64,000 nucleotides of DNA from Emticicia oligotrophica DSM 17448 (lineage in GTDB: Bacteria; Bacteroidota; Bacteroidia; Cytophagales; Spirosomataceae). The position numbers were made by a program, and so were the translations under genes. The stretch spans positions 4,092,001 through 4,156,000 of the forward strand of contig NC_018748.1 in assembly GCF_000263195.1 (NCBI RefSeq), written 5' to 3'. The first letter of the stretch is position 1. Each line of letters opens with the position of its first letter. Below are positions 48,427 to 63,708 of the stretch, piece by piece. Under the pieces are notes generated by a model. That model did no database searches and was not told the DNA's origin. It saw only the letters and a list, made by a program, of their open reading frames with translations.

Positions 48427-48453
48427 TATATGATAATTATTAATTATGATGCT

Positions 48454-48489: not shown

Positions 48490-48548
48490 TATTTAGTTTA
48501 AGTTTAGTCTATTTGATAATTCAAAACTTCTTTTCTCTATAATACTTC

Positions 48549-48606
48549 TTTTAACCTTTTTTTAATCTTCCTTTAAAATCGACTTGATATTCAAAAAACA
48601 ATTTTA
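48549..48606 (+). promoter_or_regulatory. Box promoter A: triple TTTTAATC-like repeat and -7 element
   Basis: TTTTAACC (48549-48556), TTTTAATC (48560-48567) and CTTTAAAA (48571-48578) start 11 bp apart. CAATTTTA (48599-48606) lies at the -7 position, its last base 35 bp after the start of repeat 3. It precedes the TolC-adaptor pair. The layout recurs at four other sites downstream and resembles tandem binding of an OmpR/PhoB-type regulator. Confidence 0.7.
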
Positions 48607-48620
48607 CATCATCAAAATAA

Positions 48621-49886
48621 ATGAATGTGATGAAGAAATTGATTTTTGTTTTACTATTACTGGGATTTAGAGTTTCTGCACAAAGTGATACGTTGAAGCT
48701 GACTTTAAAGCAAGCTGAAGATGATTTTTTCAAGGAAAATCTTCAGTTAGTGGCTGCTAAATTGGGAATTTCCGAAGGTAGAGCATACGAATTACAAGCT
48801 GGTTTGAGACCCAATCCGAGTCTATATTTTGAGCACATGCCTTACAATACACAAAACAAGGAGTTAGGAGGTTTTAAAAAAAATAATGCGGAGCAAATTA
48901 TTCAATTTCAATACCTCGTTCAAGTTGCCCAAAAACGCCAGAAGGCCATTTCTCTTGCTCAAGCTAATACCGAACAAGCCGAAAATAGCTTTAGAGAATT
49001 AATCAGAAATCTTCAGTATCAATTACATGCCACTTTCTATGATTTATATTTTACCAATCAGGCATTGGTAGTTTATGAACAAGAAATATCAACGCTCCAA
49101 CAGACCTTAAATGCCTATCAAGAGCAATTTAATCGTGGAAATGTCCCTTTAAAAGATTTAGCTCGATTAAAAGCTTATTTGGTTTCACTGAATACTGAAA
49201 AGCAATCATTGATTCAACAAAAATTTGATGACGAAAGAGATTTAGGTTATTTGCTTGGTTCAAAAAAACAGTATACTATCGAACCAGTGGTTGAATCAGT
49301 TTTTACGAATGTCGACTTTAATAAGCTGACAATCAGTGATTTAATAAATATTGCTTCGGAAAATAGATTTGATTTGAAAGGTGCATTGACACAAAGAAAA
49401 ATTGAAGAGCGTAATTTGGAATTCCAAATGGCTAATAAAAAACCAGATTTGACTTTTCAAATGACATATGACCGAAATGGTAGTTTTGTACAAAATTATT
49501 TAGGACTTGGCGTTAGCATGAACCTACCTGTTTTTAATAAAAACCAAGGAAATATTCAAGCCGCTCAAATAAGAATACAAGAAGCTGAAAAATTACAAGA
49601 ATCGTATCAGTTGAAAGTAGAAAAAGATGTTCAAAATGCTTTCTATAAAGCACGTCAAGCAGATACAGTTGCTAAATCAATTGACAGTAAGTTTAGTGAC
49701 GATTTTTCTAAACTTATCGCTGGAGTATTAGATAATTATCGAAAACAAAACATTACAGTTGTTGAGTTTATAGATTTTTTTGACTCTTATAAACAAACAA
49801 TTTTGCAATATAATCAACTGCAAAACGATAGAGTATCTGCCTTTGAAAATCTAAACTTTACGGTTGGTAAAGCAATTTTGAATTAA
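48621..49886 (+). CDS. TolC family outer-membrane efflux protein (CzcC/CusC-like)
   Basis: 421 residues with a signal peptide (1-21, FRVSAQ) and no lipobox. Two TolC repeats are present: the first has RPNPSLYFEHMPY and long coiled helices; the second has NKKPDLTFQMTYDRNG and LGLGVSMNLPVFNKNQGNIQAAQ. It forms the outer-membrane channel of a tripartite pump. It heads a two-gene unit with the adaptor gene 36 bp downstream, and box promoter A precedes it. The matching HME pump lies 8 kb away at 57880. Confidence 0.9.
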   Translation: MNVMKKLIFVLLLLGFRVSAQSDTLKLTLKQAEDDFFKENLQLVAAKLGISEGRAYELQAGLRPNPSLYFEHMPYNTQNKELGGFKKNNAEQIIQFQYLVQVAQKRQKAISLAQANTEQAENSFRELIRNLQYQLHATFYDLYFTNQALVVYEQEISTLQQTLNAYQEQFNRGNVPLKDLARLKAYLVSLNTEKQSLIQQKFDDERDLGYLLGSKKQYTIEPVVESVFTNVDFNKLTISDLINIASENRFDLKGALTQRKIEERNLEFQMANKKPDLTFQMTYDRNGSFVQNYLGLGVSMNLPVFNKNQGNIQAAQIRIQEAEKLQESYQLKVEKDVQNAFYKARQADTVAKSIDSKFSDDFSKLIAGVLDNYRKQNITVVEFIDFFDSYKQTILQYNQLQNDRVSAFENLNFTVGKAILN

Positions 49887-49922
49887 TTTTTATCGAAATT
49901 ATATATTTAAAAATAAAATAAC

Positions 49923-51032
49923 ATGAAAAATTCATTGAGATTATTGTTTCTGGGGCTATCGATTGTATCGATTTTTTCCACTGCAATGACTGGTTGTGGA
50001 GAAGGGCAGACCAAACAAGATTCTAAGGAAGCAGCTCAAAAGCAAGTCAGTTTAGATGCAGAAACTTATAAAAATTTAAAAACTATCAATGCAGAAGTAA
50101 AAACTGTAAATCAGGTTTTAAATTTAACTGGCAAAATTACCTTTGACCAAGATGGTGTTGTGAAAGTTTTTCCTTTAGTAGGTGGACACATCGAGGAGGT
50201 TAAAGTCGAATTAGGCGATTATGTGCAAAAAGGACAAGTTTTAGCGGTGATTAGAAGTGGAGATTTAGCCGATTTGGAGCAACAAGCAATTTCTGCCAAA
50301 AGTAATTTATCGGTTGCACAAAAAAATCTTCAAGTTTCTGAAGATATGACAAAGTCTGGCCTTTCATCTCAAAAAGAATTAGTTGCAGCCAAAGAGGGTG
50401 TAGAAACTGCAAAAGCAGAAGTAAATAGGGTGGCAGAAAGAAAGAGTATCTTAGGTGCTAAAGGAATGTTGTATGTAGTTAAAGCTCCGACTAATGGATT
50501 TATTGTTGAAAAAACCGCGGCTACGGGCATGGAACTGCGTGGAGATGACCCCGAAAATTTATTTACAATTAGCAACCTTGACCGTGTTTGGGTCATGGCA
50601 AATGTATATGAATCAGATATTGCAAAGGTGCATTTAGGGCAAGAAGCAAAAATTACCACTATATCTTTTCCAGATAAAGTATATACAGGCAAGATTGATA
50701 AAATTTTCAATACGCTTGACCCGATGAATAAAACTGAAAAGGTACGAATTCAATTGATGAACAAAGATTTTCAGTTAAAACCAGAAATGTTTACGAATAT
50801 TATAGTTGAATATGGTGGTTCTGAGCAACGTCTTGCTGTGCCTAGCAAAGCTGTAGTTTTTGATAATAATCAGAATTTTGTGGTTGTAAAAGAGTCAGGA
50901 AAATTGGCTGTAAAACCTATTTCGATTTACAAAGTAGTTGGTGATAAAACCTTTATTTATTCAGGAGTTGAGGCAAATACGCCAATTGTGACTGAAAACC
51001 AATTGACTTTATATCAAGCACTTATTCAATAA
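49923..51032 (+). CDS. RND efflux periplasmic adaptor lipoprotein (CzcB/CusB-like)
   Basis: 369 residues with a lipobox (AMTGC, lipid Cys 25). The lipoyl-type domain has VFPLVGGHIEEVKVELGDYV with KGQVLAVI, the alpha-hairpin spans about 120-180, and beta-barrel segments include VWVMANVYESDIAKVHLGQ. The C-terminal membrane-proximal part ends in NTPIVTENQLTLYQALI. This is the adaptor of an HME-type pump joining a TolC channel to CzcA. No Met-rich CusF-like domain is visible. Confidence 0.9.
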   Translation: MKNSLRLLFLGLSIVSIFSTAMTGCGEGQTKQDSKEAAQKQVSLDAETYKNLKTINAEVKTVNQVLNLTGKITFDQDGVVKVFPLVGGHIEEVKVELGDYVQKGQVLAVIRSGDLADLEQQAISAKSNLSVAQKNLQVSEDMTKSGLSSQKELVAAKEGVETAKAEVNRVAERKSILGAKGMLYVVKAPTNGFIVEKTAATGMELRGDDPENLFTISNLDRVWVMANVYESDIAKVHLGQEAKITTISFPDKVYTGKIDKIFNTLDPMNKTEKVRIQLMNKDFQLKPEMFTNIIVEYGGSEQRLAVPSKAVVFDNNQNFVVVKESGKLAVKPISIYKVVGDKTFIYSGVEANTPIVTENQLTLYQALIQ

Positions 51033-51059
51033 TTATTGTTTGTTTATTTATTTTAGATT

Positions 51060-51083
51060 CGGGTTACTGAAATTAGTAACTCG
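51060..51083 (+). terminator. Hairpin after the CzcB-like gene
   Basis: CGGGTTACT (51060-51068) / AGTAACTCG (51075-51083), one G-T wobble, 6-nt loop. The T-run is weak, so it may be a partial terminator or mRNA-end structure. Confidence 0.5.
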
Positions 51084-51153
51084 ATTCTTATACCCCAATT
51101 TTAATGATAATTAATTGTATTACAATACCTTTAATCATCGACTTTGGGGATAG

Positions 51154-51211
51154 TTTTAATCAAATTTTAAGACGATATACTTATTTGGAAAGCCATCGTT
51201 GAATATTTTTG
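51154..51211 (+). promoter_or_regulatory. Box promoter C: repeat pair and perfect -7 element
   Basis: TTTTAATC (51154-51161) and TTTTAAGA (51165-51172) start 11 bp apart. The third slot (51176) is degenerate. TATTTTTG (51204-51211) is an exact -7 element ending 35 bp after the third slot starts, the same geometry as at the other box promoters. The ATG of the next gene lies only 10 bp further on. Confidence 0.65.
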
Positions 51212-51220
51212 TAAAAATAA

Positions 51221-51613
51221 ATGGGTAACACAATTTTGAAATATCTTCTTTTTTTGTGTATTCTTTTAATGGGTGCCAGTTGTCGAGCGGATGAGTTTAA
51301 AAGAAATATTAGTCCGACTCTATCACCTCACAAAAGAAACTCAATTGTTTTGCCTTTGAGTGGTTTAACTAAGACTTTTGCACTAACCCTCAAAACAGCT
51401 ATTTCTTTTTATAATCTTTTCTTTTATTTAGAAGAAATAGTCGAAGATGCGAAAACAAATAAAAAACCATATCCCACACAAGAAAATAATTATACCAAAA
51501 AACCTTCCATTTGCCTATTAGGCTTACAATCAAAATTTACCTACTATTATTTATTTAAAAAAAATCATAAAGGCCATAAAAGGTTTATTTTAAACTGTGC
51601 CTATTTACTATGA
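51221..51613 (+). CDS. Small putative lipoprotein of unknown function
   Basis: 130 residues, not recognised. The N-terminus has a lipoprotein signal (CILLMGASC, lipid Cys 21). The mature part is basic, with FKRNISPTLSPHKRNSIVL, a hydrophobic helix (about 45-65), a YLEEIVEDAKTNKKP stretch and a Lys/Tyr-rich end. It lies under box promoter C, between the HME adaptor and the HAE-1 cassette. Its start codon is about 10 bp from the -7 element, so the message is nearly leaderless. It could be a spurious frame, but the promoter and lipobox support it. Confidence 0.55.
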   Translation: MGNTILKYLLFLCILLMGASCRADEFKRNISPTLSPHKRNSIVLPLSGLTKTFALTLKTAISFYNLFFYLEEIVEDAKTNKKPYPTQENNYTKKPSICLLGLQSKFTYYYLFKKNHKGHKRFILNCAYLL

Positions 51614-51849
51614 TTTTAGTTTTTTGAAAGCAAAATTGCTTATAAAAGACATCAATACAATTAAATCAAATTTCGAACCTGTTTGAGGTAAATCATTCTG
51701 CTGCTTTTACAGAACTCTACATTCAAACAGTATATCAAACGCAAAAAAACAAGCTTTAAAATAGGCTTTTCGGCCTCAATGGCAACGCTTTGCCTATATT
51801 TTAATAGCTCTTCGACAATTATAAATTTTAAATCCGAAGAAGAATAATT
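51614..51849 (+). promoter_or_regulatory. Gene-less leader of the HAE-1 cassette with hairpin
   Basis: No open frame of interest. AAAATAGGC (51758-51766) can pair with GCCTATATTTT (51792-51802, one bulge) around a 25-nt loop, followed by a short T-rich run. It may terminate or attenuate readthrough from the small lipoprotein gene into the AcrA-like gene. Confidence 0.4.
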
Positions 51850-52938
51850 ATGAAAAAATCACTCATGTTTTTAGGTTTGACTGTCTTGCTTTTTAATGCG
51901 AGTTGTAAGTCAGAAGAAAAAGAGGAAAAGAAAGAAGATGCCAAACTTCTAGTTACTTCTCCCATCCGCAAAGATACTGTTGTCACTACCGACTATGTTT
52001 GCCAAATTCGATCAATTAATAATATCGAGTTACGTGCCCTTGAGAAGGGTTATTTACAAGGCATTTTTGTAGATGAAGGTAAGTTTGTGAAAAAAGGACA
52101 ATTAATGTTCCAGATTATGCCAAACCTCTATCAAGCAGAAATGAAAAAAGCGGAAGCGGAAGCAAATTATGCAGAAATTGAATATAAAAACACCAAATCA
52201 TTGGCTGATGGAAATATTGTTTCAGCAAATGAATTAGCTCTGGCCAAAGCAAAACTAGACAAAGCTCTTGCTGAATTGGCTCTAACGAAAGTGCATTTGG
52301 GATTTACTGAAATTCGAGCACCATTTGATGGAATCATGGACCGCCTTCGTGTAAGAAAAGGTAGTTTGGTTGATGAAGGTGATTTACTTACAACTTTATC
52401 AGATAATAGCAAAATGTGGGTTTATTTCAATGTGCCAGAAGCACAGTATTTAAACTTTAAAACCCATGCAAAAAGTGATGGTGGAATGCAAAAAGTATCG
52501 CTCAAAATGGCTAATAATGAATTGTTTAAGTTTCCGGGTATTGTAGAAACCATTGAAGGAGAGTTTGATAATGAAACAGGAAATATCGCCTTTAGAGCAA
52601 CGTTCCCCAATCCAGAAGGACTATTAAGACATGGTGAAACAGGTAATATTCAAGTAACAGTTCCTGTGAAAAATGCATTGCTTATTCCACAAAAAGCTAC
52701 TTTTGAGGTACTCGATAAAACGTATGTGTATGTAATTGATAAAGACAATATTGTGCGTTCTCGCCCCGTAACGATTGCCGCTGAAATGCCGCATTTATAT
52801 GCTATTTCTTCTGGTCTATCTACTGGCGACAAGATTCTTTTGGAAGGTTTAAGAAAAGTAAAAGAAAACCAAAAGATAGATTACAAGTTTGAAGAACCTT
52901 CACAGGTAATTTCACACTTAAGTCTTTACGCTGAATAG
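51850..52938 (+). CDS. RND efflux periplasmic adaptor lipoprotein (AcrA/MexA-like)
   Basis: 362 residues with a lipobox (FNASC, lipid Cys 19) and a Lys/Glu-rich linker. The lipoyl halves are [20 protein letters not shown] and [15 protein letters not shown]; the hairpin between them is short (about 95-145), as in HAE adaptors. Barrel and membrane-proximal domains follow ([25 protein letters not shown]). It links the AcrB-like pump to its outer-membrane channel. The pump gene starts 28 bp later. Confidence 0.92.
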
Positions 52939-52966
52939 TTTTTATCCACCGAAACAAAAGAAATAT

Positions 52967-55900
52967 ATGTTTAGTAATATCATCAAACGACCTGTATTGG
53001 CTATCGTTATTTCGGTATTGATAGTTTTTACTGGTACTTTAGCCATCAAGCAACTGCCAACTTCGCAGTTTCCAGAAATTGCCCCTACAACAGTCAATAT
53101 CTTTATTGCTTACCCAGGGTCAAGTGCTGACGTTCTCGTTAAATCTACACTCGTAACCCTCGAAAATGCCATCAATGGTGTTCAGGGAATGAGATACCTC
53201 GCCACCGATGCAACAAGTGCGGGTGAAGCAACGCTTCGTGTAATTTTTGAACCGGGTACCGACCCTAATCAGGCGGTTATTAGGGTAAAAACAAGGGTTG
53301 ACCAAGTAATGCCTTTGTTACCAGAGTTAGTACAACGTGAAGGGGTTGTGATTACACCAATCCAACCAAGTATGTTGATGTACATTAATCTCTATGGAAC
53401 AAGTAAGAATTTCGATGAAAAGTTTTTGTATAACTACGCTAACGTAAACCTTTTACCCGAAATTAACCGTATCAATGGGGTAGCAAGAACGCAAATTTTG
53501 GGTAGTCGCCAATTTGCGATGAGGGTTTGGTTAAATCCAGACCGTATGCGTGCATATAATATTTCGGCTGAAGATGTAATGAAAGCATTGGCAGAGCAAA
53601 GTATTATTGGTCGCCCGGGTCGTATTGGTCAAAGTTCTGGTATAGCGGCTCAATCTTTAGAATACGTTTTGACATACAAAGGCCGCTACAATAAACCCGA
53701 AGAGTATGAAAATGTGATTCTGCGAGCAAATCCTGCTGGTGAAAGTATTCGATTGAAAGATGTTGCTAAAGTAGAACTTGGCAGTGAATTTTTTGATATT
53801 TATTCTAACCTTGATGGTCATCCTTCGGCAGCGATTGTATTGAAACAAAATGTGGGTAGTAATGCGAGTGAAGTAATTCAACAAGTAAAAGATAAAATGG
53901 AGGAGTTAAAAGCAACTTTCCCTCCCGGAGTTGAATATAAGTTGAGTTATGATGTATCGAAATTTTTGGATGCCTCAATTGAGCAAGTACTTCATACCTT
54001 ACGTGATGCCTTTATTTTGGTGGCTTTGGTTGTTTTCCTTTTCTTAGGCGACTGGCGTTCGACACTTATTCCAATTATTGCCGTACCTGTGTCATTAATT
54101 GGTGCATTTTTCGTGATGCAAATGTTTGGGCTTTCTATAAATCTTATCACACTTTTTGCATTGGTTTTGGCTATTGGTATTGTGGTTGATGATGCGATTG
54201 TGGTTGTTGAGGCCGTTCACGCCAAAATGGAAGAAGAGCATCTTTCGCCATATAATGCTGTTAGAAAAGTAATGGGCGAAATCAGTGGAGCTATCATTGC
54301 AATTACGCTCGTAATGGTGTCTGTGTTCTTACCAATTGCCTTTATGTCAGGTCCTGTGGGTACTTTCTATCGGCAGTTTTCAATTACGATGGCGAGTTCT
54401 ATCATACTTTCGGCTGTTGTTGCTCTTACGCTAACCCCAGTACTTTGTGCCATGATTCTTAAAAATAATCATGGAAAACCAAAGAAAAAATCTCCAATTG
54501 ATTGGCTCATTGACCAATTCAACAAAGGTTTTGAAAAGTTAACAGGTCGTTATGTGAGTGTTTTGAAGTTCATTGTTAATAAACGATTGCTAACGTTCTT
54601 AATATTAGTTGCTTTTAGTGTTGGAATTATCTTCGAAAACAAAATCTTACCAGCGGGATTTATTCCAAGTGAAGACCAAGGTACAATTTATGCCATTATT
54701 CAAACACCACCGGGTTCAACACTTGAAAGAACAAATGCAGTTTCAAGAGAATTACAAGAAATTTGTAAGAAAGTAGAAGGCGTTGAATCGGTTTCTTCAT
54801 TGGCAGGATACGAAATCATGACCGAAGGTCGTGGTTCGAATGCTGGTACTTGTTTGATTAACTTGAAAAACTGGTCTGAAAGAGAAAGAGGAGTACATGA
54901 AATTATCGAAGAATTAGAAGAAAAAACTAAAGATTTAGGGGCAGTTGTAGAGTATTTCGAGCCACCTGCCGTACCCGGTTTTGGTTCTTCAGCAGGTTTT
55001 TCAATGCGTATGCTTGATAAGAATAATACAACTGATTATCAAGAATTCGATAAGGTAAACAAAGACTTTATGGCTGCTTTAGGTAAGCGTAAAGAGTTGA
55101 CTGGTTTATTTACTTTCTTTGCCGCGAATTATCCTCAATATGAATTAGAGATTGATAATAATGTGGCCATGCAAAAGGGGGTATCCATTGGAAAAGCAAT
55201 GGAGAATCTTAATATCATGATTGGTAGTACTTATGAACAGGGTTTCATTCGTTTTGGCCGTTTCTTTAAGGTCTATGTTCAGTCATCACCAGAATTCCGA
55301 CGTCTTCCTTCTGATATTATGAATATGTTTGTAAAAAACGATAATGGCGAAATGGTGCCTTATTCAGCATTCATGAAATTAGTGAAAAAACAGGGTCCAA
55401 ACGAGATTACAAGGTATAATATGTACAACTCATCGTCAATTCAAGGACAACCAGCGAAAGGTTATACCACTGCCGATGCAATCAAGGCTATTCAAGAAGT
55501 ATCAAAAACACTTCCAAAAGGTTATGATATTGCTTGGGAAGGTTTATCCTATGATGAAGCCAAACGAGGAAACGAATCAATTTATGTTTTTGCTGTCGTT
55601 TTGATATTTGTTTATTTCGTTTTGGCGGCTCAATATGAAAGCTTCTTGTTGCCTATGGCTGTAATTTTCTCGCTACCTGTTGGGGTATTTGGGTCTTTCT
55701 TCTTGCTAAAAGCGATGGGTATGGCCAATGATGTTTATGCTCAAGTAGGTCTTATCATGTTAGTTGGTCTTTTAGGGAAGAATGCCGTATTGATTGTAGA
55801 GTTTGCCGTTCAACAGCGACAAAAAGGTATGTCGATTTTTGATGCTGCCATTGAAGGAGCTAAAGTTCGTTTCCGACCAATTTTAATGACATCTTTTGCT

Positions 55901-56215
55901 TTCGTAGCAGGTCTAATTCCTTTGGTTATTTCTCATGGTGCTGGTGCAATTGGTAATAAAACAATCGGTGGCTCAGCTATGGGTGGAATGCTTTTCGGTA
56001 CAATTTTCGGTGTAATGATAATTCCAGGTCTGTATTACATATTTGGAAGTTTATCCGATGGTAAACATCTAATTAAAGACGAGGACGAAGAACCATTATC
56101 TGAAAGGTTTGTGGAATCAAGTGAAGAACGCGGTAAGATTTTGAAAAATATCAGAAAAGCGAATGAAAGATTGAAAAAATTATTAAACCGAAACGACGAA
56201 GATGATACGAAATAA
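52967..56215 (+). CDS. RND multidrug efflux pump, HAE-1 family (AcrB-like)
   Basis: 1082 residues, 12 membrane helices with two large periplasmic loops. It begins [20 protein letters not shown]; the proton-relay helix 4 has [11 protein letters not shown] with the Asp pair D408-D409, matching D407-D408 of E. coli Acr[27 protein letters not shown] is the family's helix 6 region. A C-terminal charged extension of about 40 residues is slightly longer than usual. It exports hydrophobic or amphiphilic compounds. Its stop overlaps the next gene by 14 bp. Confidence 0.95.
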
Positions 56216-57641
56216 CATAAAAAAGAAACTTCTGTTTATTGCTTTGGCCGTTTCAGCAATAGTTCTCGACTCTTGTAAAACACCGGCCATAATTGGCAAA
56301 ATAGAAAATAAATCATTGCCTAATTATGCAGCTTCACAGGATTCTACCAATTCTGCGAAACTAAAATGGAAGGATTTTTTCAATGACCCATATCTAAATG
56401 CATTGATAGACACAGCACTGCTAAATAATCAGGAGCTGAATATTACAATGCAAGAAATTGAGATGTCGAAAAATGAAATCATGGCACGAAGAGGGGAGTA
56501 CCTTCCATTTGTAAGATTAGGGGGCGGAACGGGTGTTGATAAAGTTTCACGCTATACGAGTAAGGGTGCAAGTGATGAAATTACTGAAATTAAGCCAGGA
56601 AAACGAACTCCAGTTGTTCTTCCTGATTCTTATTTTGGGGCTTTTGCTAGCTGGGAGGTAGATATTTGGCATAAATTGCGTAATGCTCAAAAAGCAGCTG
56701 CCGCCAATTATTTAGGAACAATTGAAGGAAAAAACTTTCTGGTGACCAACTTAGTTGCTGAAATTGCTAATTCTTATTACGAATTGTTAGCACTTGATAA
56801 TCAATTAGATATTGTCAAGAAAAACATCGAAATATTAAATTCGGCTTTATTGATTATCAAACAAGAAAAAGAAGCAGCAAAAGTTACAGAATTGGCTGTT
56901 CAAAGATTTGAAGCTGAGGTTTTTAAGACTCAAAGTCTTCAATTTGAAATTCAGCAGAAAATAGTTGAAACCGAAAATCGAATAAATTTTTTAGTTGGAC
57001 GTTTCCCTCGACCAATTCAAAGAAGTTCACAACAATTTGCTTCAATGGTACCTACGAAAATTTCCGTTGGATTACCTGCACAGTTATTGGAAAAACGCCC
57101 CGATATTCGTCGTGCAGAATTAGGTATTCAAGCTGCTAAATTGAATGTAAGTGTTGCAAAAGCTAATTTTTATCCTTCGTTGGGGCTTTCTGCATCATTA
57201 GGTTTTCGTTCGTTTAACCCACTTTTATTAGCGAATTTGCCACAATCTTTGATTATGTCATTAGCTGGAGATTTGGCTGGTCCATTAGTAAATAAAAATG
57301 CAATTACAGCAACTTATAAAAATGCGAATGCCAAGCAGATTCAAGCAGTTTACGATTATGAAAAGACTGTTTTAAATGCATTTATCGAGGTTACAAATCA
57401 GTTGGCAAACATTAATAATCTTGAAAAGAATTATTCAATGAAAAATAATCAAGTGGAAGCATTGACAAGGTCAACAGATATTTCGCTAAAACTTTTCAAA
57501 GCTGCACGTGCAGATTACATGGAGGTATTGTTAACTCAACGAGATGTACTTGAAGCCAGAATGGAATTAATCGAAACTCGCATGAAACAATTGAATGCGG
57601 CTGTTAACACTTATAGAGCATTAGGCGGAGGCTGGAATTAA
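56202..57641 (+). CDS. Outer-membrane efflux lipoprotein (OprM/NodT family)
   Basis: 479 residues with a lipobox (VLDSC, lipid Cys 25). The first TolC repeat has [20 protein letters not shown] and the Trp-rich [18 protein letters not shown]; the second has [19 protein letters not shown] and [20 protein letters not shown], all NodT-family hallmarks. It completes the HAE-1 tripartite pump. Its start lies inside the pump gene (14-bp overlap), so the genes are translationally coupled. A long hairpin terminator follows. Confidence 0.94.
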
Positions 57642-57659
57642 TATTAAGTGTAAATTATC

Positions 57660-57731
57660 ATCCACAAAGGTTTTTAAGAAATAAACTAGGGTATTATTAA
57701 ACTAGATATTTTTTTAGAAATCTTTGTGGAT
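57660..57731 (+). terminator. Long-loop terminator of the HAE-1 cassette
   Basis: ATCCACAAAG (57660-57669) pairs perfectly with CTTTGTGGAT (57722-57731), which is followed by six T. The pairing extends inward with few mismatches around a loop of about 50 nt. Confidence 0.7.
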
Positions 57732-57796
57732 TTTTTGAATAGTTACATATTTGTTCATTAAATATATTCAATCCTTTCTTATTAAACTTATTTTTG

Positions 57797-57854
57797 TTTT
57801 AATCCTCTTTTAATCTTTCCTTTAAACGTCTTTCAGACTACCACAACACTTTTG
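57797..57854 (+). promoter_or_regulatory. Box promoter B: triple repeat and -7 element
   Basis: TTTTAATC (57797-57804), TTTTAATC (57808-57815) and CCTTTAAA (57819-57826), 11 bp apart. CACTTTTG (57847-57854) is a near -7 element at the standard distance of 35 bp from repeat 3 start to its last base. It drives the CzcA-like gene at 57880. Confidence 0.7.
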
Positions 57855-57879
57855 TGCTATCAAGCAAACAACGAGTGTC

Positions 57880-60800
57880 ATGAACAAATTCATCAAAGGA
57901 ATTTTATCCTTTTCCCTCAAAAATAAATACTTTATCTTTTTTGCTACTTTATTAGCAGTTATTGGTGGTTGGATTGCCTACCAAAATACACCAATTGAGG
58001 CTTTTCCCGATGTAACAAATACACAAATCACAATTATTACACAATGGCCGGGCCGAAGTGCGGAGGAGGTTGAAAAGTTTGTTTCAATTCCAATAGAAAT
58101 CGGATTGAATCCTGTTCAAAAGAAAACAGATATTCGTTCGACTACTGTTTTTGGTCTTTCGGTTGTGAAAGTTATGTTTGAAGATGGTGTTGATGATGCT
58201 TTTGCTCGTCAACAAATTAATAATTTGATAGGAAGTGTAAATTTACCAGAAGGTATTGAACCTGATATACAACCTCCTTATGGCCCTACTGGTGAAATTT
58301 TCAGATATACACTTGAAAGTAAAGCACGAACTGTCAGAGAATTGAAAACAATCCAAGATTGGGTGGTTGAACGACAGTTGAAAGGGGTAGCAGGTGTAGC
58401 AGATGTAGTTAGTTTTGGTGGAGAAGTAAAAACCTATGAGATTAGTGCTAATCCTCATTTACTAGCAGATTATGATGTTACTCCACTTGAGCTTTATCAA
58501 GCGGTTGCCAACTCGAATGTAAACGTTGGTGGAGATGTGATTGAAAAAAATTCAGAGGCTTATGTTGTTCGTGGAATTGGCCTTTTGAAGGGGATTAATG
58601 ACATAGAAAAAATAATCATTAAAAGTGCGAATGGCGTACCAATTACGGTAAAAAACGTGGCAACAGTTACAGAATCGGCCTTACCTCGTCTGGGTCAAGC
58701 TGGTAGAGATGGACAAAATGATGTTCTTGAGTGTATTGTTGTGATGCGTAAAGCTGAAAATCCAAGTCAGGTTATAGAAAATGTTAAAGCAAAAATTGAA
58801 GAACTTAATACTTCTATTTTGCCACAAGATGTAAAAATTAATACTTTTTATAATAGAGAAACCCTTATTCATTTTGCTACCCACACCGTAACACATAACC
58901 TTTTAGAAGGAATTATATTTGTTACCTGCATTGTGTTTTTGTTTATGGCCGATTGGCGTACAACGGTTACTGTTTCGATTGTTATTCCATTGGCTCTATT
59001 ATTTTCATTCATTTGTCTTCGTTTGAAAGGAATGTCTGCCAATTTACTATCAATGGGAGCGATTGACTTTGGTATTATTGTCGATGGTGCAGTTGTAATG
59101 GTAGAAGGAATTTTCGTGGTGCTTGATAATTTGGCTAATCAGATAGGTATGGAGCGATACAATAAGCTTTCAAAATTGGGTATTATTCGTAAGACTGGTA
59201 CAGAAATGGGTAAAGCCATATTTTTCTCAAAGCTAATTATCATAACTTGTTTGATTCCAATATTTTCTTTCCAAAAAGTTGAAGGAAAAATGTTCTCACC
59301 TTTAGCTTGGACATTGGGTTTTGCTTTACTCGGAGCATTGATTTTTACACTTACGTTGGTGCCTGTTTTAGCAAGTATTTTATTAAGAAAGAATGTACGT
59401 GAAAAACACAACCCGTTTGTGTTATTTATTGAAAAATGGGTAATGAAAGGCTTTAATTATGTATTCAATCATAAACGCAAAACATTACTAATTACTGTAA
59501 TTGTAGTAGTATTGGGTCTATTTAACTTTAAGTTTTTAGGCTCAGAATTTCTTCCAGAATTGAATGAAGGTTCGATTTATGTGCGTGCAAGTATGCCGAT
59601 GAATATTTCATTGAATGAATCGATTCGATATACCAATGAGATGCGTCAAGTATTTAGAAGTTTCCCAGAGGTAAAAGGGGTGATGTCTCAAACTGGCCGT
59701 CCAAATGATGGAACCGACCCAACTGGCTTTTATAATATTGAGTTTTTGGTTGATATTTTCCCACAAGAGGATTGGAAAAGAGATATTTCAAAAGAACAAT
59801 TAATCAGTCAAATGCAAGAACGGCTTGATAAATTCACGGGTGTTAACTTCAACTTCTCGCAACCTATTATGGACAATGTTGAGGAAGCAGTTTCGGGGGT
59901 TAAAGGTAGTATTGCCGTGAAAATTTACGGACAAGATCTAGTTTTGATGGAGAAAAAAGCCAAAGAGGTACATAATCAATTGGCTACTGTTCGTGGAATT
60001 GAAGATTTAGGGGTAATTAAAAATATTGGCCAGCCCGAATTGAGAATTGAATTAGATGAAGACAAGTTGGGTCTTTATGGTGTTCAAAAAGGTGATGCTC
60101 AAGCAGTTATTGAAATGGCCATTGGTGGTAAAGCGGCTACTCAAATATACGAGGGAGAGCGTAAGTTTGATTTAAGAATTAGATTCCAACCAGAATATCG
60201 TAAATCTGATTCCGAAATCAGTAATTTATTAATTCCAACGATGAATAATACTCAAATTCCGTTGAAAGAAATAGCTAAAATCTATTACAATACTGGCCCA
60301 ATATTAGTATTCCGTGAGGCTAATCAACGTTTCAATGCAGTAAAATTCTCGGTTCGTGGAAGAGATATGGGAAGTGCCATTGCAGAAGCCCAGCAAAAAG
60401 TAAATGCACACGTGAAGTTACCTAAAGGATATACAATGAAATGGGCTGGTGATTTTGAAAATCAACAACGTGCTACCAACCGTTTAATGCAGGTAGTTCC
60501 AATTAGTTTGTTGTTGATTTTCTTGATATTATTTGTATTATTTGGCAATATTAAAGATGCTGGAATTGTATTGGTGAATGTACCATTTGCAATCATTGGT
60601 GGAATAGCTTCTTTGCTAATTTCGGGTACGAATTTTAGTATTTCGGCAGGTATTGGTTTTATTGCACTTTTCGGTATTTGTATTCAAAATGGCGTTATTT
60701 TAATTTCAGTATTCAAGAAAAACCTTCATGAACGAATGAATCTCACGGAAGCTATTACTAAAGGTGTTATTTCACGTATTAGACCTGTAATAATGACCGC

Positions 60801-60978
60801 CATGATGGCTGCAATTGGTTTAATTCCTGCAGCAATCTCTCACGGTATTGGCTCAGAAACTTCAAAACCTTTGGCAATTGTAGTGATTGGTGGATTAATA
60901 ACCGCAACGGTTTTAACTTTACTAGCCTTCCCTATAATTTTCTATGTCTTTTATAAAGAAAAGTTGCCTTTAAATTAA
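57880..60978 (+). CDS. Heavy-metal RND efflux pump, HME family (CzcA/CusA-like)
   Basis: 1032 residues, 12-helix RND layout. Helix 4 reads AIDFGIIVDGAVVMVEG and keeps the HME proton/cation residues D396, D402 and E409, the same spacing as D402, D408 and E415 of CzcA. GWIAYQNTPIEAFPDVTNTQ near the N-terminus and YVRASMPMNISLNESIRY are HME-type. The metal is not certain; the DFG-DG motif is usual for divalent metals, while Cu(I) pumps have Met pairs. Its channel and adaptor are presumably the products at 48621 and 49923. Confidence 0.94.
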   Translation: MNKFIKGILSFSLKNKYFIFFATLLAVIGGWIAYQNTPIEAFPDVTNTQITIITQWPGRSAEEVEKFVSIPIEIGLNPVQKKTDIRSTTVFGLSVVKVMFEDGVDDAFARQQINNLIGSVNLPEGIEPDIQPPYGPTGEIFRYTLESKARTVRELKTIQDWVVERQLKGVAGVADVVSFGGEVKTYEISANPHLLADYDVTPLELYQAVANSNVNVGGDVIEKNSEAYVVRGIGLLKGINDIEKIIIKSANGVPITVKNVATVTESALPRLGQAGRDGQNDVLECIVVMRKAENPSQVIENVKAKIEELNTSILPQDVKINTFYNRETLIHFATHTVTHNLLEGIIFVTCIVFLFMADWRTTVTVSIVIPLALLFSFICLRLKGMSANLLSMGAIDFGIIVDGAVVMVEGIFVVLDNLANQIGMERYNKLSKLGIIRKTGTEMGKAIFFSKLIIITCLIPIFSFQKVEGKMFSPLAWTLGFALLGALIFTLTLVPVLASILLRKNVREKHNPFVLFIEKWVMKGFNYVFNHKRKTLLITVIVVVLGLFNFKFLGSEFLPELNEGSIYVRASMPMNISLNESIRYTNEMRQVFRSFPEVKGVMSQTGRPNDGTDPTGFYNIEFLVDIFPQEDWKRDISKEQLISQMQERLDKFTGVNFNFSQPIMDNVEEAVSGVKGSIAVKIYGQDLVLMEKKAKEVHNQLATVRGIEDLGVIKNIGQPELRIELDEDKLGLYGVQKGDAQAVIEMAIGGKAATQIYEGERKFDLRIRFQPEYRKSDSEISNLLIPTMNNTQIPLKEIAKIYYNTGPILVFREANQRFNAVKFSVRGRDMGSAIAEAQQKVNAHVKLPKGYTMKWAGDFENQQRATNRLMQVVPISLLLIFLILFVLFGNIKDAGIVLVNVPFAIIGGIASLLISGTNFSISAGIGFIALFGICIQNGVILISVFKKNLHERMNLTEAITKGVISRIRPVIMTAMMAAIGLIPAAISHGIGSETSKPLAIVVIGGLITATVLTLLAFPIIFYVFYKEKLPLN

Positions 60979-60991
60979 TTTTCATAATATG

Positions 60992-61026
60992 AAGGGCTAA
61001 GATTTATGCTTAGCCCTTTTTTATTT
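60992..61026 (+). terminator. Intrinsic terminator of the CzcA-like gene
   Basis: Perfect stem AAGGGCTAAG (60992-61001) / CTTAGCCCTT (61009-61018) with a 7-nt loop and T-run. It separates the pump gene from the kinase gene. Confidence 0.9.
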
Positions 61027-61073
61027 TGTTTGTTATATGTGATATTGCATGATAATTAATCGAGAATTTCTTT

Positions 61074-62447
61074 ATGAAAATAGTTGACAAACAGACCATA
61101 CGTATTCCAACAATTTTGAGTGTTGCACTCATCATTTTTTCGGCTAATATATACCTCTTTTATAGTAATTTCCGTGAAAATGAGTTTTATCTATACCTTC
61201 GGAATAATGCTATTTCGATTGAAAAAATGATTATAGACAAAGGCTTGAGTGGCGAAGATGTTCGTACAATGGATGATATGAAAGAAAATATTTATACTCA
61301 AGAGCAATTTATTATTTATGATTCAACGGGCACCGTAATTTTTAAATCGAGATATGCTGTTAATCACTTAACAGATAATTTACTAAAAGAAGTGTATAAG
61401 CATGAGGTTGAATTTAAAAAAGATGGATATGAAAGAACCATTTTCCTCAGTCGTAACAATAAATATAAACGTCTGCTTGTAATAGAAGCTGCAGGATATG
61501 ACTTATCTGGCTTTAATAAACAAAGAAATCTCCTTTATATTTTAATCATTAGTTCGGTTTTACTAATTAGTATTATTACGCTTACCACGAGATATTATAT
61601 CAGGACAGATTTGCGGCCTATTGGTGAAATTGCCAAAAGAATGAAGAAGATTTCTAGCAAAAACCTTCAATCACGAATTCCAGAAGCCGACCTTGATAAT
61701 GAAATTGGCCAAATGGCTCATACATTCAATGATTTGCTTGATAGACTAGATAATTCCTATACCCAACAACGAAATTTTGTATCTTATGTAACACACGAGC
61801 TTCGAACCCCCCTATCTATTTTATTGGGTAATGCCCAAGTGACACTCATGAAAGAACGAACAGTTGAAGAATACAAACAAACTGTAGAAAACTTTCAAGT
61901 GGATATTAACAATATGATAAATTTAGTAAATAGTTTACTCGAATTAGCAAGAATGAATGCCGATGCCCAGTCGGTGCCTTTTGTAGAGGTAAGGGTTGAT
62001 GAAGTATTATGGGCTGCTTCTGATATTGTTAAAAAAAATCAACCAGAATATCATATTAATGTTGAGTTTGAGCAGATTCCTGAAAATGATGAGCAAATGA
62101 TTGTGAGTGGAAATGCAGAATTATTAGTATTGGTTTTTAGAAATCTGATGGAAAATGCATGTAAGTATAGTGCAGATAAAAGAGTAGAAGCGAAAATTTT
62201 ATATGAGAAAAATTCAATTAGGATTGATTTTATTGATAAAGGGGTGGGGATGTCTTCGAGTGAAACGGAACATATTTTTGAACCTTTTTATAGAAATGAA
62301 AAAACCAAAGAAATCTCAGGACATGGAATTGGCTTACCACTAACCAAGAGAATCGTGGAAATTCATTCTGGGAAAATATCGGTTTTATCAGAAGAAGGTG
62401 TTGGTTCAATTTTTACAGTAGAATTGCCCGTAAAGCAGCTTTATTAG
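61074..62447 (+). CDS. Membrane-bound sensor histidine kinase
   Basis: 457 residues. Helix 1 (about 13-33) and helix 2 (about 152-173) flank a periplasmic sensor of about 115 residues; a HAMP domain follows (about 174-227). The phospho-acceptor is H241 in VTHELRTPLS. The ATPase domain has the N-box NLMENACKYS, and DKGVGMSSSE and GHGIGLPLTKRIV as G-boxes. The sensor has few His or Met, so no metal site is obvious and the signal is unknown. It belongs with the regulator at 62860; unusually the kinase gene comes first. Its stop lies just before box promoter D. Confidence 0.94.
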   Translation: MKIVDKQTIRIPTILSVALIIFSANIYLFYSNFRENEFYLYLRNNAISIEKMIIDKGLSGEDVRTMDDMKENIYTQEQFIIYDSTGTVIFKSRYAVNHLTDNLLKEVYKHEVEFKKDGYERTIFLSRNNKYKRLLVIEAAGYDLSGFNKQRNLLYILIISSVLLISIITLTTRYYIRTDLRPIGEIAKRMKKISSKNLQSRIPEADLDNEIGQMAHTFNDLLDRLDNSYTQQRNFVSYVTHELRTPLSILLGNAQVTLMKERTVEEYKQTVENFQVDINNMINLVNSLLELARMNADAQSVPFVEVRVDEVLWAASDIVKKNQPEYHINVEFEQIPENDEQMIVSGNAELLVLVFRNLMENACKYSADKRVEAKILYEKNSIRIDFIDKGVGMSSSETEHIFEPFYRNEKTKEISGHGIGLPLTKRIVEIHSGKISVLSEEGVGSIFTVELPVKQLY

Positions 62448-62448
62448 A

Positions 62449-62506
62449 CTTTAATTTGCTTTTAATTTAGGTTTTAGATGTTTTTTATCATTAGAATATA
62501 TTTTTG
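62449..62506 (+). promoter_or_regulatory. Box promoter D: triple repeat and perfect -7 element
   Basis: CTTTAATT (62449-62456), TTTTAATT (62460-62467) and GTTTTAGA (62471-62478), 11 bp apart. TATTTTTG (62499-62506) is an exact -7 element at the standard distance. The site directly follows the kinase stop and drives the small-protein gene and perhaps the regulator gene, which would be autoregulation. Confidence 0.7.
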
Positions 62507-62558
62507 ATTTAGAAAGCCAAACAGTGATTTGGTAGCTAACTCTATAATATAGACTGAC

Positions 62559-62777
62559 ATGAAAAAAAATCTTATTTTAGCATTTATTGCGGCTATTTTT
62601 GCTGCAAATGCAAATGCCCAAACAACACCTGAAGTTTCAAAAAAAACAGCTAAATTAGAGAAAAAAGAAGATAAAATAACGGCTAAAATGGCTGCTCATG
62701 AAATGAAGAAAGAGCAGAAAGAAGCTAAAAAAACAGAGAAAGAGACAAAAAAAGAAGCTAAACACGCACATAAATAA
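62559..62777 (+). CDS. Small secreted Lys/Glu/Ala-rich protein
   Basis: 72 residues: a clear signal peptide (1-20, ANANAQ) and a mature part of about 52 residues made of Lys, Glu, Ala and Thr, predicted one long charged helix, with a His end (KHAHK). No family is recognised. It lies between kinase and regulator genes under box promoter D, so it is probably strongly induced by the system; a periplasmic feedback or polyanion-binding role is conceivable but unproven. Confidence 0.75.
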   Translation: MKKNLILAFIAAIFAANANAQTTPEVSKKTAKLEKKEDKITAKMAAHEMKKEQKEAKKTEKETKKEAKHAHK

Positions 62778-62787
62778 TTTTTCTTAA

Positions 62788-62851
62788 TATTTTTGCTCTG
62801 ATTCCCACAAATTTATATTAGCAAGGTAGCTTACTGCCTTGCTAAAATTTT
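62788..62851 (+). promoter_or_regulatory. Second promoter and attenuator-like hairpin before the regulator gene
   Basis: TATTTTTG (62788-62795) is an exact -7 element. Downstream, TTAGCAAGGTAG (62818-62829) and CTGCCTTGCTAA (62834-62845) form a 12-bp stem (one T-G pair) with a CTTA loop, followed by AATTTTT. The hairpin lies between this promoter and the regulator ATG at 62860, so it can act as a terminator of the small-protein message and as an attenuator of the regulator. Confidence 0.6.
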
Positions 62852-62859
62852 TCGATTTT

Positions 62860-63540
62860 ATGAAAATACTGATTGTAGAAGACGAGCTCCGTTTGGCTGA
62901 ATTCATTAAAAAAGGTCTTGAGGAAAATACACACATGGCAGATATTGCCAAAGATGGTGAAATGGGCCTAAAGATGGCATTCGATAACGATTATGATGTA
63001 ATTATTATGGATGTTAATATGCCAAAAATGAATGGCTATGACGTTACACAACAAATTAGGTCTGAAAAGCAAAATACCCCAATTCTGATGCTCACAGCCA
63101 TGGGTACATTAAACGATAAAGCCTTGGGTTTTGATGCTGGTATTGATGATTTTTTGGTGAAACCATTTCAGTTTCAAGAGCTTTTAATGAGACTCAACGC
63201 TCTACATAGAAGAAATGCAATTGTGCAGCATCAAGTAAAGCGTAATATTATGAAAGTCGCTGACTTAGAACTTGATTTAACAGCCAGAACAGTCATTAGA
63301 AACGGGAAAGATATTTTGTTGACTGCTAAAGAATATGCTTTGCTTGAGTATTTAATGATTAACCATAATAGGGTAGTATCCAGGGTTGATATTGCTGAAA
63401 AGATTTGGGACTCAGACCTTGACCCAACCAGTAATACCATTGATACTTACATAAATTTTCTTCGAAAAAAAGTTGATAAAGAATTTTCTTCCAAACTAAT
63501 CCACACAATAGTGGGAATGGGTTATATCTTAAAAGAGTAG
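62860..63540 (+). CDS. OmpR/PhoB-family response regulator
   Basis: 226 residues from the ATG at 62860 (MKILIVEDELRLAEFIKK); seven upstream codons are not conserved. The receiver domain has the acidic pair in VEDE, phospho-acceptor D51 in IIMDVNMPKMNGYD, the LTA switch and FLVKPFQFQEL with the conserved Lys. The winged-helix domain (about 130-226) has DLELDLTARTVIRNGK, LTAKEYALLEYLM and SNTIDTYINFLRKKVD. Such regulators bind 10-11-bp-spaced direct repeats, fitting the five box promoters of the island. Partner kinase: 61074. Confidence 0.95.
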   Translation: MKILIVEDELRLAEFIKKGLEENTHMADIAKDGEMGLKMAFDNDYDVIIMDVNMPKMNGYDVTQQIRSEKQNTPILMLTAMGTLNDKALGFDAGIDDFLVKPFQFQELLMRLNALHRRNAIVQHQVKRNIMKVADLELDLTARTVIRNGKDILLTAKEYALLEYLMINHNRVVSRVDIAEKIWDSDLDPTSNTIDTYINFLRKKVDKEFSSKLIHTIVGMGYILKE

Positions 63541-63561
63541 TAATTCTTATTAAGAATATAA

Positions 63562-63596
63562 AATAGCCTTGACATAAAATCTAGGCTATTTTTTTG
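63562..63596 (+). terminator. Intrinsic terminator of the response-regulator gene
   Basis: Stem AATAGCCT (63562-63569) / AGGCTATT (63583-63590) followed by a T-run. Confidence 0.88.
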
Positions 63597-63646
63597 TAAA
63601 TACTTGATAATAAGGTGTTTGAGTTGTATTATGAGGCGGATTCTAT

Positions 63647-63704
63647 TTTTAATCACTCTTTAATTTGATTTTTAGAAGCAATTAAGATAATACCTATACT
63701 TTTA
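63647..63704 (+). promoter_or_regulatory. Box promoter E: triple repeat and -7 element
   Basis: TTTTAATC (63647-63654), CTTTAATT (63658-63665) and TTTTTAGA (63669-63676), 11 bp apart. TACTTTTA (63697-63704) lies at the standard distance, and the following CATC is shared with box promoter A. No gene of normal size follows within 200 bp; a terminator lies 80 bp downstream. Confidence 0.7.
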
Positions 63705-63708
63705 CATC

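What the first reader, a model, noticed from the sequence alone, without database searches (positions are those of the whole stretch)
48549..63704. Five promoters with one shared architecture define a local two-component regulon
Sites at 48549, 51154, 57797, 62449 and 63647 each carry 8-mers close to TTTTAATC with starts exactly 11 bp apart (three copies in four sites, two clear copies at 51154). In all five a -7 element (xAnnTTTR) ends 35 bp after the start of the third repeat slot. Seen directly: sequence, phase and constant distance. Known: OmpR/PhoB-family regulators bind 10-11-bp-spaced direct repeats and activate from just upstream of the core promoter. Inference: the regulator at 62860 binds here, controlling both parts of the split HME pump, a small lipoprotein, itself with the small secreted protein, and a short RNA.
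Basis: partly seen in the sequence, partly recalled or inferred. Interest (0 to 1): 0.85.

Follow-up and report, generated by a model that had tools for sequence, protein, structure and literature searches.

The report
Shared promoter code of bacterial efflux switch
Five promoters in a Bacteroidota bacterium carry the same evenly spaced repeats at a fixed distance from the core promoter, most likely because one two-component switch turns on efflux pump genes, small secreted proteins, its own regulator gene and a short RNA together.

Summary
TTTAA-N6-TTTAA occurs in the 64-kb window only at the five named sites, and all five have a Bacteroidota -7 element (xAnnTTTR) at one fixed offset. The genome is an Emticicia-genus member (Cytophagales). 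A profile built only from other Emticicia genomes ranks four of the five sites 1-4, and the fifth (51154) 8th with a weak score, in the whole 5.2-Mb genome. The operator is better described as four 11-bp-phased half-sites, two strong and two weak, ending 9 bp before the -7 element. Similar operators lie upstream of the regulator gene in 7 of 7 orthologues of 59-62% identity (5 of 7 with a proper -7 element) and beside several paralogous two-component systems.

A second regulator (RR2, 57% identical, similar recognition helix) has the same operator at its own promoter and in two relatives sits beside the same kinase, so RR1 alone cannot be named as the binder. The 'lipoprotein' lacks a conserved lipobox cysteine. 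Probable further targets lie outside the window. The short RNA is supported by conservation. A different RNA family, without an Rfam match, sits beside the regulator in several other genera. Binding, activation and RNA function are untested.

The parts
48549..48589 (+). Operator 1: four 11-bp-phased slots (TTTTAACC, TTTTAATC, CTTTAAAA, ACTTGATA) upstream of the TolC-MFP half of the HME pump
   Evidence: R1 rank 3 in own genome, E 5.5e-6
48599..48606 (+). -7 element CAATTTTA
   Evidence: 8 of 8 columns identical in 4 genomes
48621..49886 (+). TolC-type outer membrane factor (OEP)
   Evidence: PF02321
49923..51032 (+). CusB/CzcB-like membrane fusion protein
   Evidence: PF16576; TIGR01730 above cut-off
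51154..51172 (+). Operator 2: two strong slots (TTTTAATC, TTTTAAGA); slots 3 and 4 not recognisable
   Evidence: R1 rank 8, E 0.046; slots 1-2 with spacer identical in 19 of 19 columns in 3 genomes
51204..51211 (+). -7 element TATTTTTG
   Evidence: 8 of 8 columns identical in 3 genomes
51221..51613 (+).
   Evidence: frame conserved; no Pfam or NCBIfam family
51850..57641 (+). HAE-type efflux operon (MFP 51850-52938, RND 52967-56215, OMF 56202-57641) between the two halves of the HME pump; no operator match of its own, possibly read from operator 2
   Evidence: absent between the halves in G010 (L088)
57797..57837 (+). Operator 3 upstream of the HME RND permease
   Evidence: R1 rank 1, E 1.0e-6
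57847..57854 (+). -7 element CACTTTTG
   Evidence: 6 of 8 columns identical in 4 genomes
57880..60978 (+). CusA/CzcA-family heavy-metal RND permease
   Evidence: TIGR00914, 939 bits against cut-off 701
61074..62447 (+). Sensor histidine kinase (HAMP, HisKA, HATPase)
   Evidence: best NCBIfam model cztS_silS_copS, below cut-off
62449..62489 (+). Operator 4 upstream of the 72-aa secreted protein
   Evidence: R1 rank 4, E 4.9e-4
62499..62506 (+). -7 element TATTTTTG
   Evidence: 5 of 8 columns identical in 4 genomes
62559..62777 (+). Small (72 aa) secreted Lys/Glu/His-rich protein; proteins of like size and composition follow an operator in two loci of the distant Emticicia clade
   Evidence: by eye; no Pfam or NCBIfam family
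62818..62845 (+). Terminator-like hairpin between the 72-aa gene and RR1; possible attenuator
   Evidence: 12 such hairpins in the stretch against 9.4 expected; hairpin GCAAGGT/ACCTTGC at the same place in G008, G004, G010 and G009, not in G003
62860..63540 (+). Response regulator RR1 (receiver plus Trans_reg_C), candidate binder of the operators
63647..63687 (+). Operator 5 upstream of the short RNA
   Evidence: R1 rank 2, E 1.1e-6
63697..63704 (+). -7 element TACTTTTA
   Evidence: 7 of 8 columns identical in 4 genomes
63711..63787 (+). Short RNA gene (start inferred about 7 nt after the -7 element) ending in an intrinsic-terminator-like hairpin; conserved core ATTTTCATAAAGGAATT
   Evidence: aligned in 5 other Emticicia genomes, least well in G003; stem 93.3% paired; no Rfam match at a gathering cut-off

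Best explanation
The five sites are operators of activator-dependent promoters. Dimers of a phosphorylated OmpR/PhoB-type regulator bind four head-to-tail half-sites 11 bp apart on one face of the DNA: two strong ones (TTTTAATC) upstream and two weak ones filling the place of the -33 element. This positions RNA polymerase on a -7 element (TAnnTTTG type) that begins a fixed 9 bp further on. The kinase at 61074 signals to RR1 (62860) and/or its relative RR2 (C5:4014811). The system thereby raises both halves of a CusA-type pump, a secreted protein and possibly an HAE pump, a Lys/Glu/His-rich secreted protein, the regulators themselves and a short RNA. Shown here: sequence, phase, fixed distance, conservation and genome-wide specificity. 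Inferred: binding, activation, which regulator, and the inducer (metal or envelope stress).
For: Fixed phase and distance in 5 of 5. A profile trained only on relatives ranks four sites 1-4 and RR2's promoter 5 in 5.2 Mb, with 51154 at rank 8. Of the five top-10 hits outside the cluster, 4 lie within 2.5 kb of an OmpR-type regulator gene, against 1.6% of the genome so placed (P about 4e-7). Identical alignment columns: slots 1-2 82 of 95, slot 3 35 of 40, slot 4 33 of 40, -7 34 of 40, spacers 42 of 75, upstream flank 179 of 485, downstream 76 of 110 (to +79) and 334 of 465 (beyond, partly coding). In 12 loci of other Emticicia genomes 29 of 44 TTTAA-N6-TTTAA have xAnnTTTR at offset 50; the next commonest offsets have 8 (offset 20, close clade) and 4 (offset 31, distant clade) (many of these are orthologous copies). 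A four-slot operator lies upstream of the RR gene in 7 of 7 orthologues of 59-62% identity, with xAnnTTTR in place in 5. CiaR binds TTTAAG-N5-TTTAAG, also 11 bp apart, with recognition helix VVEVYVSKVRKKL (PMC3091779, passages); RR1 has TIDTYINFLRKKV there.
Against: No binding or expression data. RR2 and several paralogues share helix residues and operator geometry, so the binder is not settled. 51154 lacks slots 3 and 4 and scores weakly (E 0.046). In G003 and G009 the two regulators and kinase stand without a pump between them, so the pump is not the system's only purpose. Profile R1 did not return C5:4156285 (only 150 of 11881 candidates were scored). In G002 and G009 exact-pattern counts do not exceed the control (3 against 3-1=2, that is 3 and 2; and 2 against 4). 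In Fibrella forsythiae and Fibrivirga the -7 position upstream of the RR gene reads GAGCTTCG and GAGCTTGG, and in the four Fibrella/Fibrivirga loci slot 3 is imperfect. The 12 more distant relatives tested show no such operator upstream of the RR gene.
Confidence: 0.8

Rival explanations
1. The same operators, but the true regulator in this genome is RR2 (or RR1 and RR2 together), with RR1 a duplicated branch. One kinase would feed two regulators that read the same operator.
For: RR2 lies beside the kinase in G003 and G009. Its promoter has the operator in own, G008, G004, G010, G003 and G009. The presumed recognition helix is nearly the same. In the distant-clade genome G005 a single RR is directly followed by the kinase.
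Against: In this genome RR2 is 140 kb away with no kinase-like frame among its listed neighbours (by eye), while RR1 stays in the cluster. Autoregulation does not show which protein acts on the other sites.
Confidence: 0.4
2. The operator is a code read by several paralogous two-component systems (cross-talk), so the five promoters answer to more than one stimulus.
For: Operators of the same or nearly the same geometry lie beside the systems at C5:1012361 (-7 one base further on), C5:518849, C5:4199791 and C5:2550244; the last has a look-alike in Fibrella forsythiae and Fibrivirga.
Against: Half-site letters differ between systems (TCTAAT at 518849 and 4199791, TTTAAGG and TTTAAAG at 2550244), which suggests each regulator reads its own version.
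Confidence: 0.25
3. The repeats bind a repressor, or the phase comes from A/T-tract DNA curvature without a specific regulator.
For: AT-rich DNA; the repeat pair alone is no more frequent genome-wide than its reverse (18 and 18).
Against: Operators persist upstream of the RR gene in six loci of 48-55% GC with the same phase, four of them with the -7 element in place. Half-sites stand where a -33 element would be, which fits activation. Specific TT.A positions are conserved, not AT content alone.
Confidence: 0.08
4. The short RNA at 63711 is not a regulator but the leader or tail of a tiny 16-codon reading frame, or a mere terminator.
For: A GTG-started 16-codon frame runs into the terminator in the own genome (read).
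Against: The GTG start is ATA in G009 and the frame is not kept in G003; changes among the others are mostly non-synonymous (read). Conservation continues outside the frame.
Confidence: 0.15

Closest known systems
CiaRH regulon of Streptococcus (CiaR, csRNAs)
   Same: OmpR-type regulator, TTTAAG-N5-TTTAAG repeats 11 bp apart upstream of the core promoter at a fixed distance, and csRNA genes in the regulon whose unpaired part often carries an anti-AUG CAU (PMC3091779, passages read). Here too a short RNA with UUUUCAU in its core is in the regulon.
   Different: Four slots rather than two, a Bacteroidota -7 element rather than TATAAT, efflux pumps as targets, and no homology shown between the RNAs. 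Pairing with an mRNA is not established here.
CusRS, CzcRS and CopRS heavy-metal two-component systems
   Same: Next to a CusA/CzcA pump; RR1's best NCBIfam model is cztR_silR_copR and the kinase's is cztS_silS_copS.
   Different: Both are below the curated cut-offs (233.0 against 279.2; 191 against 292.55). The operator is a run of direct repeats, whereas the CusR box is a palindrome (recalled). In two relatives the regulators and kinase stand without a pump between them.
PhoB, PmrA and HP1043-type tandem direct-repeat operators
   Same: Head-to-tail half-sites about 11 bp apart in or next to the -35 region (recalled; PmrA and HP1043 papers seen only in the listing).
   Different: Combined with the sigma-A -7 box of Bacteroidota and a four-slot array kept in several genera.
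Bacteroidota sigma-A promoter (-7 TAnnTTTG)
   Same: The -7 consensus (PMC9723704, passages).
   Different: No TTG stands at the usual -33 distance (17-23 bp before the -7, recalled) in the five sites: three have none in p+22 to p+49, and the others have one 12 and one 16 bp before the -7.

Membership tests
OmpR/PhoB-family regulon | Regulator with receiver and winged-helix Trans_reg_C domains | tested here: met
   PF00072 and PF00486 in RR1
OmpR/PhoB-family regulon | Tandem direct half-sites spaced 10-11 bp | tested here: met
   11-bp phase in 5 of 5 sites; weak slots 3 and 4 in most rows
OmpR/PhoB-family regulon | Purified regulator binds the repeats | not testable with these tools
   needs footprinting
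CiaRH-type regulon with small RNAs | 11-bp TTTAA-type repeats at fixed distance from the core promoter, including a small-RNA promoter | tested here: met
CiaRH-type regulon with small RNAs | Small RNA pairs with start regions of target mRNAs | tested here: inconclusive
   19-nt complementarity (G-U allowed) to the kinase start in the own genome only; 9 to 12 nt in G008, G004 and G009
CusRS/CzcRS heavy-metal system | NCBIfam subfamily cut-off for regulator and kinase | tested here: not met
   233.0 against 279.2 bits; 191 against 292.55 bits
CusRS/CzcRS heavy-metal system | Response to metal ions | not testable with these tools
   no expression data
RNA family modelled by R2 | Match to the covariance model of core AAAGUUGUGUGGAUU plus terminator | tested here: not met
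   at the window's short RNA R2 gives no match at E<=10; its relatives in L084 and L085 reach only E 4.6 and 3.9
Known Rfam family | Covariance-model score at or above the gathering cut-off | tested here: not met
   window 48000-64000, six other loci

The most novel reading that the evidence does not exclude
Cytophagales run a CiaRH-like circuit that arose independently: one kinase, two duplicated regulators and dedicated small RNAs beside the regulator gene (at least two kinds, each found under the same four-slot operator in some genomes) that feed back on the circuit or on envelope-protein mRNAs. The RNA family modelled by R2, found in 80 of 390 genomes of the order and without an Rfam match, would be a new class of RNA tied to two-component control in a phylum whose RNA regulation is little known. 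Against it: in most loci of genus g33 the best operator lies between that RNA and the regulator, so the RNA need not be driven by it, and no target was found.
Probability: 0.2. Interest if true: 0.75.

Novelty: new variant of a known kind. Interest (0 to 1): 0.55.

Why it matters
If true, two-component regulons of this part of the Bacteroidota become readable from sequence: four 11-bp half-sites plus a -7 element at a fixed offset point to the targets of each paralogous system, and the half-site letters perhaps to the regulator. It also gives a concrete, testable activator geometry for promoters that lack a -33 element, and conserved small RNAs next to a regulator gene for functional study.

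Tried and rejected
One-mismatch pattern scan: noise, 38 against 73 in the control.

Short RNA pairing with the kinase start (19 nt, G-U allowed): best of the reading frames scanned in the window, but the leader before the start codon is not kept in relatives. The pairing with the RR1 start rests on the common ATGAAAAT start: YTTTATGAAAAT occurs 32 times in the genome (one of them the RNA gene itself), reversed control 22.

R2-type RNA as antisense to the IHT codons of regulator genes: 11 nt with RR1 in the own genome and 9 nt in G005, but not at that place in the 7 other genomes printed (a ninth gave no row), nor in the three other own regulators tested (prompted). Rejected as chance.

16-codon frame in the short RNA: not coding-like.

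Covariation of the short RNA's terminator: 93.3% of cells paired and covariation score reached by 6 of 500 shuffles each, but the number of pairs changed on both sides (2) is reached by 227 of 500, so it is modest support.

Rfam: nothing at a gathering cut-off.

Papers: the searches listed no description of this system; only listings and abstract openings were seen, from an open-licence library, apart from passages of PMC3091779, PMC6847099 and PMC9723704.

Full report
Setting. The window is C5:4092001-4156000 of a 5.22-Mb genome. Its genus in the search tool contains a genome (G004) whose contig is that of Emticicia aquatilis (contig lengths), and RR1 orthologues of 94, 93 and 85% identity are in Emticicia sp. 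HJF.15, E. aquatilis and E. aquatica. NCBI places Emticicia in Leadbetterellaceae, Cytophagales; the tool's family grouping is wider. From 48.6 to 63.8 kb lie: TolC and MFP; a small secreted protein; an HAE-type MFP-RND-OMF operon; a CusA/CzcA-type permease; a sensor kinase; a 72-aa Lys/Glu/His-rich secreted protein; an OmpR-type response regulator (RR1); and a short RNA.

Observation. Each of the five sites has two clear copies of TTTTAATC 11 bp apart, a weak third slot, and a -7 element of the form xAnnTTTR ending 35 bp after the start of slot 3. In the window TTTAA-N6-TTTAA occurs nowhere else on either strand. Genome-wide the strict pair has 18 matches, as many as its reversed control, but 6 of them (five sites) are in this cluster, and 0 of the 12 others has the -7 element in place. 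With the -7 element fixed the own genome has 8 exact matches against 1 in the control, and 11 Emticicia genomes together 57 against 21 (summed); G002 (3 against 2) and G009 (2 against 4) do not stand out. With one mismatch the own-genome count is below the control (38 against 73), so only exact matches carry weight.

Independent test. I built a sequence profile (R1) from 15 operators of other Emticicia genomes, none from this genome. In this genome its ranks 1-4 are the sites at 57797, 63647, 48549 and 62449 (E 1.0e-6 to 4.9e-4). Rank 5 is the promoter of RR2, a paralogue 57% identical to RR1 (E 0.0025). The site at 51154 is rank 8 (E 0.046). Ranks 6, 7 and 10 also lie beside OmpR-type regulator genes: between a kinase and TolC/MFP-like genes at C5:1014406, before a TerC-like gene and a regulator at C5:520371, and before a universal-stress-like gene divergent from a regulator at C5:4199678 (gene names by eye). 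Four of the five top-10 hits outside the cluster lie within 2.5 kb of one of 15 OmpR-type regulator genes, against 1.6% of the genome so placed (P about 4e-7); of ranks 11-50, one does. R1 did not return C5:4156285; only 150 of 11881 candidates were scored.

Anatomy. Over 36 Emticicia operators (many orthologous) and 14 operator rows chosen to avoid orthologous duplicates, the repeats do not stop at slot 3. TT.A recurs at p+24 and p+35, in phase with slots 1 and 2, in 11 and 9 of 14 rows, and at no other offset from 18 to 45 in more than 2. In one search, with one mis-cut row (10 and 9 of 14), none of 20,000 shuffles reached either count. Slots 1 and 2 are in these rows by selection, slots 3 and 4 are not. 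A paralogous system shows the plan in full: at C5:2548752 four TTTAA lie exactly 11 bp apart, followed by TTGCTTTG at the same offset. The last slot ends 9 bp before the -7 element. A -33 TTG, which the standard promoter of this phylum has (recalled; the -7 consensus TAnnTTTG is in PMC9723704, passages read), is not at its usual distance in the five sites; slots 3 and 4 stand there instead. This is what an activator-dependent promoter would look like (inference).

Conservation. At the five promoters, aligned with 2 or 3 relatives each, identical columns are 82 of 95 in slots 1-2, 35 of 40 in slot 3, 33 of 40 in slot 4, 34 of 40 in the -7 element, 42 of 75 in spacers, 179 of 485 in the upstream flank (which includes the end of the kinase gene at one site), and 76 of 110 and 334 of 465 downstream. 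In 12 loci of other Emticicia genomes 29 of 44 TTTAA-N6-TTTAA have the -7 element at offset 50 (21 of 31 in the close clade, 8 of 13 in the distant one); the next commonest offsets have 8 and 4. Further away, 19 loci with regulator relatives were tested. In 7 of 7 of 59-62% identity (three Fibrella, Fibrivirga, Rudanella, a strain labelled Flavobacterium sp. SUN052, a Spirosomataceae MAG; locus GC 39-55%) the best four-slot score upstream of the regulator gene was reached by none of 300 shuffles; 5 of the 7 have xAnnTTTR at the offset, while F. forsythiae and Fibrivirga read GAGCTTCG and GAGCTTGG, and slot 3 is imperfect in the four Fibrella and Fibrivirga loci. In 0 of 12 more distant loci was there a signal (lowest p 0.083). 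The scoring rule was written after seeing the Emticicia sites, and the shuffles keep base composition only.

Who binds. RR1 is the natural candidate but not the only one. In G003 and G009 the order is RR2, kinase, RR1, without a pump between; in G010 the TolC and MFP genes and CusA are contiguous, each half with its own operator. RR2 and RR1 are nearly the same in the presumed recognition helix, and RR2's own promoter carries the operator in six Emticicia genomes including this one. In the window's genome RR2 is 140 kb away with no kinase-like frame among its listed neighbours (by eye). In G005, of the distant clade, one regulator is followed directly by the kinase. I read this as one kinase with two duplicated regulators that share an operator (inference; no tree was built).

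Targets. In the window: TolC-MFP, the secreted protein at 51221 (and by read-through perhaps the HAE operon; not shown), CusA and probably the kinase, the 72-aa protein, perhaps RR1, and the short RNA. Outside: RR2 (C5:4014704), a fatty-acid hydroxylase (PF04116) followed by two more genes, one of them DUF2147 (C5:4156285), and, weakly (one mismatch, R1 rank 12 with E 0.45), a gene at C5:3687086 that looks like the DUF4136 gene found after the short RNA in G008, G004 and G010 (Pfam was run on the G008 gene only). In two loci of the distant clade an operator following another kinase-like gene drives a small Lys/Glu/His-rich secreted protein (G005 and G006). The mix suggests envelope stress as well as metals (inference); the regulator and kinase do not reach the NCBIfam cut-offs of the heavy-metal families.

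The 130-aa protein keeps its frame in 2 relatives, but the would-be lipobox Cys is Ser in both. A hairpin with a T-rich tail separates the 72-aa gene from RR1 (such hairpins number 12 in the stretch against 9.4 in shuffles), and a hairpin is kept there in four of five relatives, so RR1 may be reached only by read-through.

Short RNA. After operator 5, about 77 nt are conserved in G008, G004, G010 and G009 and recognisably in G003, ending in a terminator-like stem that is 93.3% paired over 6 sequences; two pairs are changed on both sides, a number that 227 of 500 shuffles also reach, while the covariation score is reached by 6. In G009 operator 5 has lost part of slot 3 and the -7 spacing. The core pattern, with up to 3 mismatches, is in 5 of 11 Emticicia genomes. 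Its core UUUUCAUAAAGGAAUU resembles the anti-AUG element of streptococcal csRNAs, which belong to the CiaR regulon with TTTAAG-N5-TTTAAG operators (PMC3091779, passages). I could not show a target: a 19-nt match to the kinase start is confined to this genome, and ATGAAAAT starts are common.

A second RNA family. In the distant Emticicia clade and in a MAG of another genus a different RNA, with core UUUUUCAUAAAAGUUGUGUGGAUUC and a terminator, lies between two operators just upstream of the regulator (in the MAG the first -7 is one base further on). The core, with up to 3 mismatches, is in 14 of 222 genomes of the tool's family, among them 11 of 11 Emticicia; in the window's genome it lies elsewhere (C5:3888732) without the operator. 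A covariance model (R2, 14 sequences) has matches at E<=0.001 in 80 of 390 genomes of the order, 65 of them in the window's family and all those below E 7e-5 there (E-values are rough and no shuffled control was run). Of the 30 loci inspected, 12 have an OmpR-type regulator gene starting within 1.3 kb downstream (at least two of them from genomes used to train R2), and 4 have a CusA-type permease ending just upstream (by eye). In most loci of genus g33 the best operator score lies between the RNA and the regulator, so there the RNA need not be under it. The window's RNA is not found by R2. No Rfam family reaches its gathering cut-off in the loci scanned.

Verdict. The five promoters are with high probability a co-designed set. 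This is a known kind of system (OmpR/PhoB direct-repeat regulon), in a variant fitted to the Bacteroidota promoter and kept in several genera. The most novel part, small RNAs tied to the regulator, is supported by conservation and position only.

Noticed in passing
C5:3888690-3888909 (-) and C5:2721272 (-), own genome; loci L181, L312: Three copies of an RNA family (core AAAGUUGUGUGGAUU plus terminator, two in tandem) without a gathering-level Rfam match, with matches in 80 of 390 genomes of the order; in several genera it sits near the regulator gene, sometimes after a CusA-type pump.
   Followed up: partly
window 63808-63871: Conserved leader with a TCTCTGATTAAAA...TTTTAATCAGAGA hairpin just before the 117-aa reading frame that starts at 63914; part of it is kept even in G003.
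   Followed up: no
C5:2548752 (own); L103 17225 and L105 18433: Four TTTAA repeats in 11-bp phase upstream of a 314-aa protein beside another two-component system; a similar gene with four TTAAG-like repeats is in Fibrella forsythiae and Fibrivirga.
   Followed up: partly
C5:520371 and C5:4199678 (own): Four-slot operators with a different half-site (TCTAAT) before a TerC-like gene with a regulator, and before a universal-stress-like gene divergent from a regulator.
   Followed up: partly
window 51781-51794: Hairpin GGCAACGCTTTGCC before the HAE operon, identical in the two relatives compared; possible attenuator.
   Followed up: no
L088 (G010): The two halves of the HME pump are contiguous, so the HAE operon between them was inserted in some Emticicia or lost in this one.
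   Followed up: partly
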